A stretch of DNA of 19,472 bases from Nitrospinota bacterium (lineage in GTDB: Bacteria > Nitrospinota > Nitrospinia > JACRGO01). Where the stretch lies: the NCBI GenBank assembly GCA_016212295.1, contig JACRGO010000050.1, positions 1 through 19,472 of the forward strand. The letters run 5' to 3'. The position numbers and the translations under genes were made by a program. The notes under the pieces were generated by a model. It searched no databases. It had not been told where the DNA came from and saw nothing but the letters and a program-made list of their open reading frames with translations. This document shows positions 220-18,923 of the stretch, one piece after another. Every line of letters starts with the position of its first letter. The stretch's first letter is position 1.

Positions 220-283
220 GCGATTGATACAAGATATTAAAGGTTTTTTTTTGTTCAATGTCAAAAATCCTGGAGGTAAACCT

Positions 284-499
284 ATGTTCGATCGAATAAC
301 ATTTGATCAGGAAATAATGGGAGGACGGGCCTGTATCCGTGGAATGCGCGTCACGGTTTCCATCATTGTGAATCAGATCGCGCATGGCGCGGCATTTGAT
401 GAAATCCTGGAAGGCTATCCCGACCTTGAAAAAGAGGATATTGAGCAGGCCTTGGAGTATGCAGCCTGGTTGGCCCGGGAAGAAGTTCATTATTCATAA
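284..499 (+). CDS. DUF433 family antitoxin-like protein
   Basis: This 71-residue protein matches the DUF433 pattern: an N-terminal strand ITFDQEIMGGRACIRG, then RVTVSIIVNQIAHG, then a winged-helix-like segment FDEILEGYPDLEKEDIEQALEYA. Family members are usually small DNA-binding antitoxins encoded just upstream of a DUF5615 (PIN/Mut7-C-like) toxin. The start at 284 is preferred over an in-frame upstream ATG at 224 because GGAGG sits at 272-276 with normal spacing and the family motif begins a few residues in. The gene appears intact. The partner toxin downstream is only a fragment, so this antitoxin seems orphaned. It may still act as an autoregulator. The family call is firm; the antitoxin role is inferred from typical context. 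Confidence 0.85.
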   Translation: MFDRITFDQEIMGGRACIRGMRVTVSIIVNQIAHGAAFDEILEGYPDLEKEDIEQALEYAAWLAREEVHYS

Positions 500-2079: not shown

Positions 2080-2115
2080 ATTATACCATGGAACATGGCG
2101 CGGCTTCGCCGCAAC
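2080..2115 (-). promoter_or_regulatory. Promoter-like palindromic motif, copy 1
   Basis: On the minus strand the stretch reads TTGCGGC-GAA-GCCGC, then CCATGTTCCATGG, then TATAAT (the -10-like box is at 2080-2085). The GCGGC-TTC-GCCGC palindrome is at 2100-2112. It resembles three other copies in the window, but here seven extra bases separate the CATG step from TATAAT. If active, it would drive the exported protein gene with a leader of about 130 bases. Confidence 0.4.
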
Positions 2116-2129
2116 CAAATTTAAAGTGC

Positions 2130-6596: not shown

Positions 6597-6624
6597 ATTA
6601 TATCATAGCGCGGCGTGGGCGCAA
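6597..6624 (-). promoter_or_regulatory. Predicted promoter of the kinase-receiver operon
   Basis: On the minus strand TTGCGC (6619-6624) and TATAAT (6597-6602) are 16 bases apart. The predicted transcript start is about 11 bases before the kinase ATG, so the leader would be very short. The spacer contains the CGCCGCGCTATGA block shared with the other copies of the palindromic motif, although the palindrome is imperfect here (GCGCCCACGCCGC). Confidence 0.6.
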
Positions 6625-6639
6625 CCAAAGGGAAAGTAA

Positions 6640-6917
6640 AATTCCAAATTACAAATAACAAATCTCAGATAAATTACAATTACTGAATGTACAAAGTAAT
6701 TCAGCAATTCTCGGTGAAAAAGTGAGATTGCCACGGCGCTGAAAGGCGCGCATCGCAATGACATCACGAAAACTATTTTTGTCATTGCGAGCGAAGCGAA
6801 GCAATCTCAAGCCCATGCCAATTCACCGAGAATTGCTGAAAGTAATTCCATTTCCTTGTTTGTTTTTTGTAATTTTGGTTATTGAGATTTATTTGTTATT
6901 TGACAATTGAGATTTGT
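6640..6917. repeat. AT-rich imperfect inverted repeat split by a MITE
   Basis: The left arm, about 6640-6683, includes ACAAATAACAAATCTCA. The right arm, about 6866-6917, reads as its inverted counterpart with shared AAATAACAAAT and AAATCTCA blocks. Such CAAATAACAAATCTCA repeats are common intergenic palindromes. The 139-bp MITE at 6701-6839 sits between the arms, so this appears to be the older element. Together with the next repeat it accounts for most of the 473-base gap between the kinase and ahcY. No gene is supported in that gap. Confidence 0.6.
6701..6839. mobile_element. 139-bp MITE with perfect 18-bp terminal repeats
   Basis: TCAGCAATTCTCGGTGAA at 6701-6718 is exactly inverted at 6822-6839. 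The 7-bp sequence AAGTAAT directly abuts both ends (6694-6700 and 6840-6846), as expected for a target-site duplication. Inside lies a second palindrome: GAGATTGC at 6724 pairs with GCAATCTC at 6801-6808, and GCAATGAC at 6755-6762 pairs with GTCATTGC at 6781-6788. The inner part contains the GCGAGCGAAGCGAAGCAATC motif seen in repeats of many bacteria. There is no coding capacity, so it would need a transposase encoded elsewhere. Confidence 0.8.
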
Positions 6918-12127: not shown

Positions 12128-12835
12128 TCATGCTCTGAGACTTTCATATTTTCTGATAAGGGCGTCTATCTCTCCCTCAGAGGCGAAACTATAAATATTT
12201 TGTCCCCCAAGGATCAAATGGTCATGAAGGGTGATCCCAAGGGGCCTGGCGGCGAAGAGGATGTCCCTTGTGATGGACCTGTCCTGCGGCGAGGGTTGGG
12301 GATTTCCGCCGGGATGGTTGTGGAAGCATATAAGGCTCGCGGCATGGCGCTTCAGGGCAAGCTCTATAATCTGCCTGGGATAAACAGTGGCCGCGTTTAC
12401 GATTCCCTGCTGAAGGGTTTCAATGGCGATAACGCCGTTGGAGGAATTCAGAAAAGCCGCCTTGAACTCCTCATGCTTCAGTCCCCCCATGGAAAGGCGT
12501 ATGTACTCCGAGACGGCGCGGAAATTGTTGAAATAATCCATTTGCAGGACCTTTTCCTTAAGGAGCGCTTCTGCTATCCCTTGAACGAGGCGGATGAGCA
12601 CAGCCGCGCTTTCTCCTATTTGCCTGGATTCCGTCAGTGAGTGAATCGGGGCGCTGAAGACGCCGGTGAGGGATTTGTATTTATTCAACAACTCCTTGGC
12701 CAGTGGCTTGCAATCCTTCCTGGGTATTCCGTAGGTTAGCAGCAATTCCACGATTTCATAGTCATGAAAACCAGTTATCCCGCTCTTTAAAAACCGTTCC
12801 CTGGTCCTTTTCCTGTGCCCTGATTGGTCGTCCAT
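12128..12835 (-). CDS. radC: RadC family JAB/MPN-domain protein
   Basis: This 235-residue protein has the usual RadC layout: an N-terminal helix-hairpin-helix-like region (about 20-90) and a C-terminal JAB/MPN metalloprotease-like domain. The metal site is complete: E122 or E123 in KHEEFKAAFLN, H172 and H174 in CFHNHPGG, S182 and D185 in PSPQD. The conserved HDHLILG and YSFASEG follow. Despite the name, a direct role in DNA repair is doubtful, and the molecular function remains unsettled. Length is normal. The ATG at 12835 lacks a visible ribosome binding site. Directly upstream lies an ATTAC-N5-GTAAT operator-like palindrome that is repeated near sucC. Confidence 0.95.
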   Translation of the reverse strand: MDDQSGHRKRTRERFLKSGITGFHDYEIVELLLTYGIPRKDCKPLAKELLNKYKSLTGVFSAPIHSLTESRQIGESAAVLIRLVQGIAEALLKEKVLQMDYFNNFRAVSEYIRLSMGGLKHEEFKAAFLNSSNGVIAIETLQQGIVNAATVYPRQIIELALKRHAASLICFHNHPGGNPQPSPQDRSITRDILFAARPLGITLHDHLILGGQNIYSFASEGEIDALIRKYESLRA

Positions 12836-12840
12836 GTTTT

Positions 12841-12930
12841 ATATTATTACGCGCAGTAATTTCCGTTTTCCGCACAATACGTCGAGATTTATTTTGGCTG
12901 CGGCCATGCCGCTCTATGGTATCTCATCAT
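12841..12930 (+). repeat. Intergenic repeat unit, copy A (a-b), with operator-like palindrome and motif copy
   Basis: Segment a (12841-12877) begins with ATTAC-GCGCA-GTAAT at 12846-12860 and runs to CGCACAA. Segment b (about 12879-12922) contains ACGTCGAGATTTATTTTGG followed by the motif TGCGGCCATGCCGCTCTATGG. Both segments recur at 13104-13314, where an inverted pair separates them. The b part is a copy of the palindromic promoter-like motif on the plus strand. Downstream of it the only open frame I see is 26 codons long (12956-13036), without a ribosome binding site. No gene is supported between here and sucC. Confidence 0.7.
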
Positions 12931-13056
12931 TTTAATCCCTGTCCAGAACCCGAAAATGAATAAAAAATTATATGTGCTCCTTGAATCCAAGGCAAATGTT
13001 ATCGAATTTAAAAATTTCCGGTACTCAGGATTTTGATCCATTAATTTTACGCGCCC

Positions 13057-13085
13057 TTGTAATTTATTCCAAGGATGAATATAAT
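13057..13085 (+). promoter_or_regulatory. Predicted promoter for sucC
   Basis: TTGTAA at 13057-13062 and TATAAT at 13080-13085 are spaced by 17 bases, pointing at sucC. The transcript would carry a leader of about 235 bases that contains the whole inverted-repeat array. Confidence 0.5.
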
Positions 13086-13103
13086 CTTTTTTTCGTTTCT
13101 TAA

Positions 13104-13302
13104 ATATTATTACGTGCAGTAATTTCCGTTTTCCGCACAAGTTTTTCAACCGCTTCCTGGAGCGCACATGGCCGCAATCAAAAGAAATTTCTCTTGAAGC
13201 ACTCGGCGCTGATTTTATTTCAAGCGGAAAACGTAAACTTCTGGATGTAATAATATCATCAATAGTTTTAAAACGTCGAAATTTATTTTGATTGCGGCCA
13301 TG
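13104..13302 (+). repeat. Intergenic repeat unit, copy B (a-b'-a'-b array)
   Basis: Segment a (13104-13140) matches copy A almost exactly, with ATTAC-GTGCA-GTAAT at 13109-13123. Then follow b' (CATGGCCGCAATCAAAA from 13168, inverted), a' (13221-13256, containing GCGGAAAACGTAAACTTC and ending GTAATAATAT, inverted) and b (13271-13302). a can pair with a', and b' with b, which interlocks like a pseudoknot. In copy A, a and b are directly joined, so this copy gained or kept an inverted pair between them. Confidence 0.7.
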
Positions 13303-13319
13303 CCGCGCTATGATAGGAA
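13292..13319 (+). promoter_or_regulatory. Palindromic promoter-like motif upstream of sucC
   Basis: TTGCGG (13292-13297), CCATGCCGCGCTATGA, then TAGGAA align base for base with the motif upstream of the histidine kinase. The -10-like box is poor, and a transcript from here would start at or after the ribosome binding site AGGA (13315-13318). It is therefore unlikely to be a conventional sucC promoter. It may be a protein-binding site or part of the repeat. Confidence 0.35.
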
Positions 13320-13326
13320 AACAAAC

Positions 13327-14487
13327 ATGAAAATCCATGAATACCAAGCCAAGAACGTTTTAAAGAAGTATGGAGTCGCGGTCCCCAAGGGAAGGATCGC
13401 CTTTAATCCCCACGAGGCCGAGGAGGCCGCCAAGGAGTTGGGGGGGGCCGTGGTGGTGAAGGCCCAGATCCACGCGGGCGGCAGGGGAAAGGGCGGCGGC
13501 GTCAAACTCGCGAAATCGCCTGAAGAGGCAAATAAAAAGGCCCAGGAAATCCTCGGGATGCGGCTGGTCACCCACCAGACCGGCCCGGAGGGGAGGATAG
13601 TTAAGACCGTGCTCGTTGAAGAAGGCATGAACATCGAGAGGGAACTGTATTTGGGGATCGTGATCGACAGGGCCATATCCAGGACGGTGATCATGGCCAG
13701 CGAGGCCGGCGGAATGGACATAGAAGAGGTGGCCGCCTCCACCCCGGAGAAGATACTGAAGGAAAGCATAGACCCTGCAGTCGGCGTCATGCCCTATCAG
13801 GCAAGAAGGCTGGCCTTTGCCTTGAACCTGAAGCCGGAAATGCTCAGGACCGCGGTCCCCTTCATCATGAACCTTTACAAGGCGTTTGAACAGGAAGACT
13901 GTTCCTTGCTGGAGATCAACCCCCTGGTGGTGACCGTAGACGGCCGGCTCCTGGCCCTGGATGCTAAGATCAATTTCGACGACAACGCCTTTTACCGCCA
14001 CAAGGAGACCACGGAATTACGCGACCTCGACGAGGAAGATCCCTTGGAAGTGGACGCCTCCAGGTACAATCTTAATTACATCAAATTGGACGGAAACATA
14101 GGGTGCATGGTGAACGGGGCCGGGTTGGCCATGGCCACAATGGACATCATAAAACTCTCCGGCGGCGAGCCCGCCAACTTCCTGGACGTGGGCGGCGGGG
14201 CCAACGCGGAGATGGTGGAGAACGCCTTTCGCATCCTCCTGTCAGATAAGCATGTCCAGGCGGTGCTGATCAATATCTTCGGAGGCATCCTGCGCTGCGA
14301 CGTCCTGGCCGACTGGGTGGTTAAGGCCGCAAACAAGCTTAATGTGAAGGTCCCGGTTGTGGTGAGGATGGAAGGCACCAACGTCGACCAGGGCAAGCAA
14401 ATCTTGAAGGAATCGGGGCTTAACTTCATTCTGGCGAACGGGATGAAGGACGCTGCTGAGCGGGTCGTGGCCTCCATAAGGAAATAG
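13327..14487 (+). CDS. sucC: Succinyl-CoA ligase beta subunit
   Basis: This is the beta subunit (386 residues) of the citric-acid-cycle enzyme that interconverts succinyl-CoA and succinate with formation of ATP or GTP. An ATP-grasp domain occupies the first 240 residues or so: [17 protein letters not shown] at the N-terminus, K46, the loop GGRGKGGGV at 51-59, E196 and N198 in LLEINPL, and D212 in LALDAKINF. The ligase domain follows with [15 protein letters not shown] near 259, [19 protein letters not shown] near 315 and VRMEGTN near 347. The start at 13327 is chosen for the canonical MKIHEYQ N-terminus and AGGA 8 bases upstream. The frame is open further upstream but enters the repeat array. 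Its usual partner sucD follows after an unusually long repeat-filled gap. Confidence 0.98.
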
Positions 14488-16821: not shown

Positions 16822-16898
<77 letters not shown>

Positions 16899-16911
16899 TA
16901 TTTTCAATGAC

Positions 16912-17976
16912 TTACAACAAACCTCCAGCTTCTTTTTTTTCGAGTGTAGTCAAAATGTAGTCAAAATTCGCCGATTTTTCCAAAATATCCACCCCGTCCC
17001 GCAAAGATTCCGGGTAATGGTGGGCATACCTTTGGGTTGTTCCAATGTCCCTATGTCCAAGCAATTTGGATACCTTGTAGAGGTCTACCCCGGCTTGAGC
17101 CAGCCGCGTTGCAAAGGTGTGGCGAAGGCAATGAAAGGAAAAATCCTCTATTCCCGCTTTTTTTAAAGTCTGCCTGAAGACATTCCCTATTTTTGCAATG
17201 TCTCTTTTCTTCCCGGCCTCGTTAAAAAAGACAACCTTGGATTGAAGGCTTCGTACCTTCGACTTTTCCACCAGGATGGACATGGCACTCTTGTTAAGGG
17301 GAATGGTTCGCGGTTTCCCGTTCTTTGCAAACGCGCCTGGGATAGTCAAGGTTTGCCGGAAAAGATCAACCCAAGACCATTCCATTGAAAGAACCTCATT
17401 ACAGCGCATTCCAGTGTGAAGATCAAAAAGAACGATACTTCGGAGCCATTGAGGACAATGAGATAAAAGCCTTTCCTCTTCCTCCCTGGTAAGCCATCGG
17501 TCCTTTTGGTTGTCTTCCTTTTCCTTAGAGACCTTGGACAATGGGTTTTCCTTTGCCCATCCCCACTCCTTGACCGCAAGACTGAAAGCCTTTGACAGCA
17601 TCGCAAGTTCCCGGTTAATGGTAGCAGGCTTTTTTCCGGCTTCCCGCCTTTTCACTTTATATTGTGAAATAAGAAAGGGGTTTATTTCGGATATGGAATA
17701 ATTTTCAAAAAAAGGCATAAGGCTATTTAGACATACCTTATAACGAATTCTCATTCCCTTTGACACCCTTGGCCCATGTTCCCTCATAAAGCGGTCCATG
17801 AAGTCTTTGAAACTTCTGGTTGTGAGTTTATCAAAGAACTTTCCCTCTGTAATATCCGCCCTGATCTTGGCCTCAATGGCCTGGGCCAATTTCCAGTCAG
17901 GCGTTTCCAGACTCTTTTGAATCTTCCTCCCGTTGTGTCGTATACAGGTCCACCAGACACCTTTTCGCCTAAACAT
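16912..17976 (-). CDS. Tyrosine recombinase / site-specific integrase
   Basis: This 354-residue phage-type integrase has an N-terminal arm-binding segment (MFRRKGVWWTCIRHNGRKI), a SAM-like core-binding domain (about 55-145) and a catalytic domain (about 160-325). The active site is complete: R191 in HTGMRCNEVL, K218 in the beta hairpin AFAKNGKPRT, H282 and R285 in FHCLRHTFATRL, H308 in LLGHRD and nucleophile Y317 in TTQRYAHH. GGGAGG lies 8 bases upstream of the ATG at 17976; a TTG two codons earlier is too close to that site. It ends 13 bases from the 3' end of tRNA-Arg, the standard position for an integrase at its attachment site. It is probably the last gene of the transcribed cluster described here. 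Confidence 0.96.
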   Translation of the reverse strand: MFRRKGVWWTCIRHNGRKIQKSLETPDWKLAQAIEAKIRADITEGKFFDKLTTRSFKDFMDRFMREHGPRVSKGMRIRYKVCLNSLMPFFENYSISEINPFLISQYKVKRREAGKKPATINRELAMLSKAFSLAVKEWGWAKENPLSKVSKEKEDNQKDRWLTREEEERLLSHCPQWLRSIVLFDLHTGMRCNEVLSMEWSWVDLFRQTLTIPGAFAKNGKPRTIPLNKSAMSILVEKSKVRSLQSKVVFFNEAGKKRDIAKIGNVFRQTLKKAGIEDFSFHCLRHTFATRLAQAGVDLYKVSKLLGHRDIGTTQRYAHHYPESLRDGVDILEKSANFDYILTTLEKKEAGGLL

Positions 17977-18035
17977 AGACAATACCTCCCTTCCTGGCCT
18001 GATTGGTGTCTGAATGGCCGCTATCTGTTTTGGGA

Positions 18036-18275
18036 TTATACCCCATTGCCTCGAACCCCTCCAAGTATTTTATTTGCCGTCCGATCCGCTTCACCAGGAA
18101 TGCGCTTCAGGCTTGCCATTAAGGTGTCGATATCATTCAAGTCGAAGAGGACGCGCCGCCCTATCTTGATTGAGGGTATGCGGCCCAAGCTTGCCCACTC
18201 GTAAAGCGTCTTGACGGGCAGGCTCGTATATCCCGAAACTTCTTTTATATCGCAGTAACGCTTAGTCACATTCAT
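18036..18275 (-). CDS. AlpA/excisionase-like helix-turn-helix protein
   Basis: This 79-residue protein has a MerR/HTH_17-type winged helix: YCDIKEVSGYTSLPVKTLYEWASLGRIPSIKIGRRVLFD, with the typical KTLYEW recognition helix and a basic wing IGRR. This family includes excisionases and AlpA regulators, which steer integrase direction or activate element genes. It lies 59 bases upstream of the integrase start, on the same strand. Its first 14 bases overlap the end of a 28-codon ORF, which suggests translational coupling; the Shine-Dalgarno site is weak (AGAAAG). Excisionase and transcription-regulator roles cannot be told apart here. Confidence 0.85.
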   Translation of the reverse strand: MNVTKRYCDIKEVSGYTSLPVKTLYEWASLGRIPSIKIGRRVLFDLNDIDTLMASLKRIPGEADRTANKILGGVRGNGV

Positions 18276-18348
18276 TTTCTTTCTGTTCTTCCATCAATGC
18301 GTCCGCCTCTTCCAAGACACCTATATAGAAATTACCGTTTGTCCTCAT
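18262..18348 (-). CDS. Small overlapping ORF in the mobile element
   Basis: This ORF has 28 codons (MRTNGNFYIGVLEEADALME, then EQKENECD). Its ATG shares one base with the stop codon of the terminase-like gene (TAATG), the classical arrangement for coupled translation. Its end overlaps the AlpA-like gene by 14 bases. The product is acidic and probably helical, with no recognised family. It may encode a real micro-protein, or serve only to carry ribosomes to the AlpA-like start, which has a poor binding site of its own. Confidence 0.45.
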   Translation of the reverse strand: MRTNGNFYIGVLEEADALMEEQKENECD

Positions 18349-18923
18349 TAAGCTTTTTCCTCATCCCCATCCACCCAGTCGGGATCATATAGAGGATGCT
18401 CAAGTAGCTTCGTGAGAGTATCACGCACCTCGTTGATATCGATTTGAACGCCGACGTTGATATTTTTTCCTTCGTCGCCATACATCCCCTCGACTTTCCA
18501 GGACTGGTCTAACGCTTTAAGTGATACATTAGGGTCCCGGTTCTCTATGTGGTTTCGGAGTTTTTGTAAACGATAACGGCGGTCCATGCCGCACTCCTCC
18601 AGCAATTCCGAAATGGCCACTTGCAAGGCGGGCTTTTGCATTAATTTGGCCCCCATCGCTTTGGCCGAATTCCTAGAGCCGCAATCAAAAGATTTCAGCG
18701 CGGCATTAGTTTGAGTTTCACCGGATGCCACTTCCAGGCAAAATTTTTGCTCTTTGACGGTCAGTGCTTCCAGGGAGGGAGGAAGTTCCGCCTGGAGCCG
18801 CTTTAGTTTTTTACATATTGCGGCACCACTTACATTAAAAAGCCGTGCAAGTTCCTTTTGATTGAAATTGCCAGACTCAAACATTTCCAAAAGCTTTGCG
18901 TCATTTATTATCCTTTTGCCCAT
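18348..18923 (-). CDS. Terminase small subunit-like protein
   Basis: In this 191-residue protein residues 5-45 form a helix-turn-helix (LLEMFESGNFNQKELARLF, then NVSGAAICKKLKRL). Residues 53-112 match the phage terminase small subunit pattern: LTVKEQKFCLEVASGETQTN, AALKSFDCGSRNSAKAMGAK, LMQKPALQVAISELL. Terminase small subunits recognise the viral packaging site and load the large ATPase/nuclease subunit. No large subunit is visible in the window. A good ribosome binding site (AAGGAG, 8 bases before the ATG) supports the start. It lies between a nuclease gene and the int/alpA genes, unlike the late-gene position usual in full prophages. It could instead be a regulator derived from this family. 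Confidence 0.7.
   Translation of the reverse strand: MGKRIINDAKLLEMFESGNFNQKELARLFNVSGAAICKKLKRLQAELPPSLEALTVKEQKFCLEVASGETQTNAALKSFDCGSRNSAKAMGAKLMQKPALQVAISELLEECGMDRRYRLQKLRNHIENRDPNVSLKALDQSWKVEGMYGDEGKNINVGVQIDINEVRDTLTKLLEHPLYDPDWVDGDEEKA

What the first reader, a model, noticed from the sequence alone, without database searches (positions are those of the whole stretch)
12841..13326. a-b / a-b'-a'-b repeat array in the sucC leader with ATTAC-N5-GTAAT sites
Copy A (12841-12922) joins segments a and b directly. Copy B (13104-13302) has an inverted pair inserted between them, so a can pair with a' and b' with b in an interlocked way. A TTGTAA-17-TATAAT promoter at 13057 would transcribe all of copy B as a leader of about 235 bases before sucC. 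Conserved ATTAC-N5-GTAAT palindromes also sit just upstream of radC. This could be a regulatory RNA or repressor-controlled leader, or a duplicated mobile repeat.
Basis: partly seen in the sequence, partly recalled or inferred. Interest (0 to 1): 0.6.

Follow-up and report, generated by a model that had tools for sequence, protein, structure and literature searches.

The report
Nested mobile repeat in gene leaders
The odd repeat in front of the sucC gene is one of roughly two hundred scattered copies of a small mobile DNA element in this bacterium; some copies carry a second, inverted copy inside, and the matching arms of these nested copies seem to keep correcting each other at the DNA level.

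Summary
The repeat geometry is real. Copy B (13104-13312) is a-b'-a'-b and copy A (12841-12918) is a-b. It is not a sucC-specific device. The genome, probably a Nitrospinota MAG, holds about 189 a and 215 b segments (0 in reversed-pattern controls). In the stretches I read there are 30 full 209-bp a-b'-a'-b units, nine direct a-b forms and many other truncated forms. Nearly all lie between genes, with no orientation bias. Most recognisable copies keep one or both termini (ATATTATTACG..., ...GCGCTATG) around variable interiors; the shortest is 39 nt. The family is nearly absent from a same-genus genome. Best reading: a species-specific, non-autonomous mobile repeat (REPIN/BIME/MITE-like) with one unit nested inverted inside another. 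The long-range arms covary (47 both-sided changes against 14.7 shuffled; local hairpins none). One-sided changes show no preference for keeping G-U pairs, and paired changes come in tracts, so arm homogenisation at DNA level fits better than RNA selection. Copy B does lie in the sucC 5'UTR: the promoter is conserved in the sister species, which lacks the element. The ATTAC-N5-GTAAT palindrome is private to the two window copies. The mobilising enzyme is unknown. New variant of a known kind.

The parts
12841..12918 (+). Copy A: 78-nt direct a-b form (consensus positions 1-37 joined to 168-210), likely an internal-deletion derivative. It lies 5 nt upstream of the radC start codon (radC on the - strand).
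13104..13312 (+). Copy B: full 209-nt a-b'-a'-b nested unit, ending 14 nt before the sucC ATG (13327).
13104..13136 (+). arm a (left end of the outer unit)
13161..13191 (-). arm b' (right end of the inner, inverted unit)
13224..13256 (-). arm a' (left end of the inner, inverted unit)
13278..13312 (+). arm b (right end of the outer unit) with hairpin GCGGC-CAT-GCCGC
13057..13085 (+). sucC promoter TTGTAA-17-TATAAT; TTGAAA-17-TATAAT lies at the same place in the same-genus genome G001, which has no element there
12967..12995 (-). promoter-like TTGCCT-17-TATAAT that would carry copy A in the radC leader; consensus match only
2094..2125 (-). further right end of the wider family (TTTGGTTGCGGCGAAGCCGCGCCATG), different interior
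6604..6646 (-). further right end of the wider family (TTTGGTTGCGCCCACGCCGCGCTATG), about 25 nt before a sensor-kinase start codon

Best explanation
Copies A and B belong to a high-copy, species-specific, non-autonomous mobile repeat. Its outer ends are fixed (left ATATTATTACG..., right hairpin ...GCGCTATG), there are no terminal inverted repeats and no visible target duplication, and the interior is variable. The 209-bp unit arose once, when one a-b unit came to lie inverted inside another, and was then amplified as a whole; direct a-b forms such as copy A are internal-deletion derivatives (inferred). Copies land between genes, often close to start codons, and copy B landed in the sucC 5'UTR. 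A transposase supplied in trans moves it (inferred; enzyme not identified). The paired arms a:a' and b':b are kept alike by copying of one arm onto the other at DNA level, through template switching or a folded single-strand intermediate (inferred), not by selection for an RNA fold.
For: Dispersed copies: about 189 a sites and 215 b sites with up to 3 mismatches and 0 in reversed-pattern controls; 30 full units. Termini kept across many interior variants, down to 39 nt; several copies of the ~78-nt a-l1-GGAGCGCGCATGGCCGCGCTATG form. Direct a-b forms have varied breakpoints. All full units share the same inner linker, so one origin. Same-genus genome nearly empty: one weak a segment by DNA search, three 3-mismatch b sites. 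Intergenic, unbiased orientation. Arms covary: 17 pairs and 47 cells changed on both sides against 6.6 and 14.7 shuffled (0/500), while the local hairpins show 0. G-U-keeping and pair-breaking one-sided transitions are equal, 25 and 25 unique events. Sister-pair comparison: 79 breaking one-sided changes and 22 compensatory ones. Paired changes cluster, 28 adjacent against 9.5 permuted. Near-perfect a-a' hairpins with the same private variant on both arms in C81 and C128. Multibase compensatory change by template switching is documented (PMC8794818).
Against: No transposase was found between a and b ends. The only full-length Y1 transposase has GGGGTCA-type ends of its own. No empty or filled site proves movement; sister sucC lacks the element, but that leader is too diverged to show the exact junction. 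Part of the covariation and clustering comes from shared ancestry of subfamilies.
Confidence: 0.78

Rival explanations
1. A dedicated regulatory leader RNA (pseudoknot or two-state switch) controlling sucC and other genes.
For: A promoter conserved with the sister species transcribes copy B. RNA fold z = -4.1. Alternative a:a' and b':b folds at -58.5 and -59.6 kcal/mol in this copy. Arms covary.
Against: About 200 copies before unrelated genes in both orientations. One-sided changes do not favour G-U pairs. The mean difference between the two folds is 10 kcal/mol across copies, so the balance is not conserved. The a-b form in the radC leader lacks the partner arms, z = 0.3. The same-genus sucC leader has no element.
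Confidence: 0.06
2. Arm covariation is purifying selection for pairing in single-stranded DNA during transposition (IS200/IS605- or REPIN-like), with both interlocked helices needed by the transposase.
For: Long-range arms covary, local hairpins do not. The ends are asymmetric, without terminal inverted repeats or visible duplication. REPINs show compensatory changes on both sides of their hairpin (PMC3116915).
Against: Most one-sided arm changes break pairs and persist (79 against 41). Position 28:128 is mismatched in 12 of 30 copies. Forms without one or both inner arms are common and at least one is multi-copy.
Confidence: 0.2
3. A REP/REPIN family served by the genome's single full-length Y1 (RAYT-like) transposase.
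For: An a segment lies 4 nt after the stop codon of the Y1 gene at C179:6934; NF047646 REP_Tyr_transpos scores 78.8 bits, cut-off 80. rayt genes often have a REP right after the stop codon (PMC2817692).
Against: No a or b segment on the 5' side. GGGGTCA at its 5' end marks TIR-flanked tyrosine transposases that are unrelated to REPs (PMC3733652), and same-genus homologues have GGGGTCA...TGACCC ends. No GTAG/CGTC tag. One adjacency among about 190 sites could be chance.
Confidence: 0.2

Closest known systems
REPINs / BIMEs (REP doublets in inverted orientation; PMC3116915, PMC2817692)
   Same: Hundreds of short extragenic palindromic units, modular combinations, inverted pairs, compensatory changes between arms, nearly species-specific expansion.
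   Different: Two different end modules (a and b) in interlocked order a-b'-a'-b instead of one REP inverted on itself. No GTAG or CGTC tag. The local palindromes do not covary, only the long-range arms. No REP-flanked RAYT found.
Bacterial MITEs and intergenic repeat units (ERIC, RU-type)
   Same: 100-200 bp, non-coding, intergenic, internal-deletion derivatives, probably moved in trans.
   Different: No terminal inverted repeats and no target-site duplication detected.
IS200/IS605-type non-autonomous elements
   Same: Asymmetric ends, potential hairpin near each end, no inverted repeats or target duplication seen.
   Different: No conserved flanking tetranucleotide (only T-rich on the left); no related transposase with these ends in the genome.
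Template-switch corrected hairpins (PMC8794818)
   Same: Multibase compensatory changes in inverted repeats without G-U intermediates.
   Different: Here in a dispersed mobile repeat with two interleaved arm pairs about 87 nt apart.

Membership tests
REP/REPIN | High copy number, extragenic | tested here: met
   189 a and 215 b sites; of 158 sampled elements that could be classified, 155 between genes and 3 inside (simple ORF calling)
REP/REPIN | GTAG or CGTC tag at the palindrome foot | tested here: not met
   reverse b starts CATAGCGCGG; a has no tag
REP/REPIN | rayt gene flanked by the same repeat on both sides | tested here: not met
   single a at the 3' side only; 5' end is GGGGTCA
REP/REPIN | Inverted doublet with compensatory changes between arms | tested here: met
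   arms are interlocked, not a simple doublet
Classical MITE | Terminal inverted repeats | tested here: not met
   left ATATTATTACG, right end read inward CATAGCGCGG
Classical MITE | Target-site duplication | tested here: inconclusive
   none seen in flanks of 26 full copies; no clean empty site
IS200/IS605-derived element | Hairpin near each end | tested here: met
   potential stems 92% and 88% paired, but no covariation
IS200/IS605-derived element | Conserved target tetranucleotide at one flank | tested here: not met
   only T at -1 in 20 of 26 and at -3 in 17 of 26
IS200/IS605-derived element | Cognate transposase | tested here: inconclusive
   two Y1 genes, no TnpB, in a 90.5% complete genome
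Regulatory leader RNA | Selection on RNA pairing | tested here: not met
   25 G-U-keeping and 25 breaking unique transitions
Regulatory leader RNA | Transcribed leader | not testable with these tools
   conserved promoter position only
Known Rfam family | Match over gathering score | tested here: not met
   best sub-threshold hit MicA, 22.9 bits, cut-off 41

The most novel reading that the evidence does not exclude
A mobile repeat whose transposition substrate is an interlocked (pseudoknot-like) single-stranded DNA with two long helices, a:a' and b':b, so that each round of movement copies one arm onto its partner and keeps both inverted pairs matched.
Probability: 0.1. Interest if true: 0.6.

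Novelty: new variant of a known kind. Interest (0 to 1): 0.4.

Why it matters
The family gives about 30 natural replicates of two interleaved inverted repeats, in which covariation can be separated from RNA function: pairing covaries strongly, yet one-sided changes show no G-U preference. It is a warning that covariation in dispersed repeats is not proof of an RNA structure, and a test bed for template-switch or hairpin-borne arm correction in bacteria. It also shows a repeat expansion in a little-studied lineage, with no known mobiliser, that has placed copies in the leaders of housekeeping genes such as sucC.

Tried and rejected
Rfam search of the region: nothing above threshold. Exact a pattern in viral contigs and in named genomes, and the full unit against phages and plasmids: none; records of the source genome or near ones may be left out there. 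IS110 and TnpB families: absent. The single Y2 (IS91-type) fragment at C194:827-991 is a 107-aa remnant whose frame ends 28 nt from a 50-nt a-b copy but lies outside it and is fused to a GGGGTCA end, so it is a lead only. Search for an autonomous a-gene-b element among the listed sites: the two longer a..b spans I inspected hold ordinary or degraded genes. Conserved bistability of the two folds: rejected. Repressor palindrome: rejected.

Full report
What is in the window. The TTGTAA-17-TATAAT promoter at 13057-13085 is present. sucC (PF08442/PF00549) starts at 13327 and radC (PF04002) at 12835 on the other strand. Two more right ends of the same wider family lie at 2094-2125 and 6604-6646 on the minus strand, with other interiors.

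Dispersal. The window is contig 225 of a 3.74-Mb, 237-contig genome. The 251-bp query found dozens of copies. With up to 3 mismatches there are 189 a sites and 215 b sites; the reversed, non-complemented control pattern gives 0 in both cases. In about 424 kb of stretches taken around these sites I count 30 full a-b'-a'-b units, nine direct a-b forms and many truncated ones. The same-genus genome has a single weak a segment by DNA search and three b sites with 3 mismatches; other genomes of the class have few or none. The organism is most likely a Nitrospinota MAG, judged from SucC (67-71% identity to Nitrospina and other Nitrospinota records); this is an inference.

Anatomy. Full units begin ATATTATTACG and end GCGCTATG, with a T-rich left flank (T at -1 in 20 of 26), no inverted termini and no visible duplication. 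Interiors vary widely; the shortest form is 39 nt, ATATTATTACGTTCAGAAATTTGCGTTTTCCGCGCTATG, at C188:16358. Direct a-b forms have different junctions (1-55|165-210, 4-48|156-210, 1-49|159-203, 2-33|160-210, 1-28|166-210, and 1-37|168-210 for copy A). They therefore look like independent internal deletions rather than the ancestral form (inference). The inner a'-b' unit, read backwards, is itself an a-linker-b unit of about 100 nt, so the composite is one unit nested inverted in another. Its inner linker is shared by all 30 copies, so the composite arose once and was then amplified (inference).

The ATTAC-N5-GTAAT sites. The consensus at this place is ATTACGTTCAGAAAT. Of 30 full copies only copy B carries the palindrome-making bases, and copy A shares several of its otherwise rare variants. 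The two window copies are therefore close relatives, and the palindrome is not a conserved operator.

Leader. In the same-genus genome the sucC gene has TTGAAA-17-TATAAT followed by a short leader and a Shine-Dalgarno, with no element (L225). Copy B therefore sits in a native sucC 5'UTR. A minus-strand promoter-like site at 12995-12967 would likewise place copy A in the radC leader, but this rests on a consensus match alone. Across the sample, 155 elements are between genes and 3 inside, with 42 in the same and 47 in the opposite direction to tandem neighbours (simple ORF calling, no genome-wide baseline). That is not what a directional leader RNA would show.

Covariation. On 30 full copies the interlocked structure has 93.8% of cells paired, and 17 pairs and 47 cells changed on both sides against 6.6 and 14.7 in shuffles (0/500). 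Sliding the partners destroys this. The local hairpins inside a and b show no both-sided change at all. Three results point away from RNA-level selection. One-sided transitions that would leave a G-U pair equal those that break the pair, 25 and 25 unique events, 47 and 41 in all. In sister-copy comparisons breaking changes dominate (79 against 41), while compensatory ones (22) sit in a few copies. Both-sided changes cluster in tracts, 28 neighbouring pairs against 9.5 expected; examples are C151 and C49:29751, and C81 and C128 show hairpins with the same private variant on both arms. Shared ancestry inflates some of these counts. Multibase compensatory change without G-U intermediates is the signature described for template switching (PMC8794818), and REPIN arms also show compensatory change (PMC3116915). 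I conclude that the arms are homogenised at DNA level; which mechanism does it is inferred.

Energy. In the window copy the a:a' and b':b folds are nearly equal, -58.5 and -59.6 kcal/mol, but across 30 copies the mean difference is 10 kcal/mol, so there is no conserved two-state switch.

Mobiliser. Two Y1 genes were found. The full-length one (NF047646, 78.8 bits, cut-off 80) has an a segment 4 nt after its stop codon, but its 5' end carries GGGGTCA, the mark of TIR-flanked tyrosine transposases that are not REP-associated (PMC3733652); same-genus homologues have GGGGTCA...TGACCC ends. A lone Y2 remnant ends 28 nt outside an a-b copy. No IS110 or TnpB. DDE transposases were not surveyed. The enzyme remains unknown.

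Verdict. The mobile-repeat reading is supported, and the leader is real as a location but not as a dedicated regulator. The interleaved a-b'-a'-b layout with DNA-level arm correction is an unusual variant of REPIN/BIME/MITE-like repeats.

Noticed in passing
window 16822-18923: A tRNA-Arg gene (16822-16898) with a phage-type integrase right beside it (16912-17982, - strand) and a borderline terminase small subunit (18348-18923): the end of an integrated phage or island runs off the contig.
   Followed up: partly
window 254-499: DUF433 (PF04255) protein, antitoxin-like, at the left end; the overlapping downstream frame may be a decayed partner.
   Followed up: no
L115 1429-2453 (G000:C179): RAYT-like gene with a GGGGTCA 5' end and an a segment 4 nt after the stop codon; two more GGGGTCAAACCTTGA copies lie close to contig ends (C156:83, C179:22551), suggesting unassembled copies.
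   Followed up: partly
L150 714-1114 (G000:C194): A 107-aa Y2 (IS91-type) transposase remnant fused to a GGGGTCAAAACC end, 28 nt from a 50-nt a-b copy.
   Followed up: partly
L034, L035 around 1501-1526 (G009): b-like right ends (CATAGCG(C/T)GGCATAGCCGCAACC) on unrelated interiors in another family of the class: the right-end hairpin is more widespread than the a end.
   Followed up: no
L031 about 1446-1533 (G001); copies at G000 C111:14381, C139:14088 and C34:12650: Some a segments carry an inserted hairpin (like GCCTGCCTGTGCGTCGCACGCGGACAGGC) at about the same point in both species.
   Followed up: no
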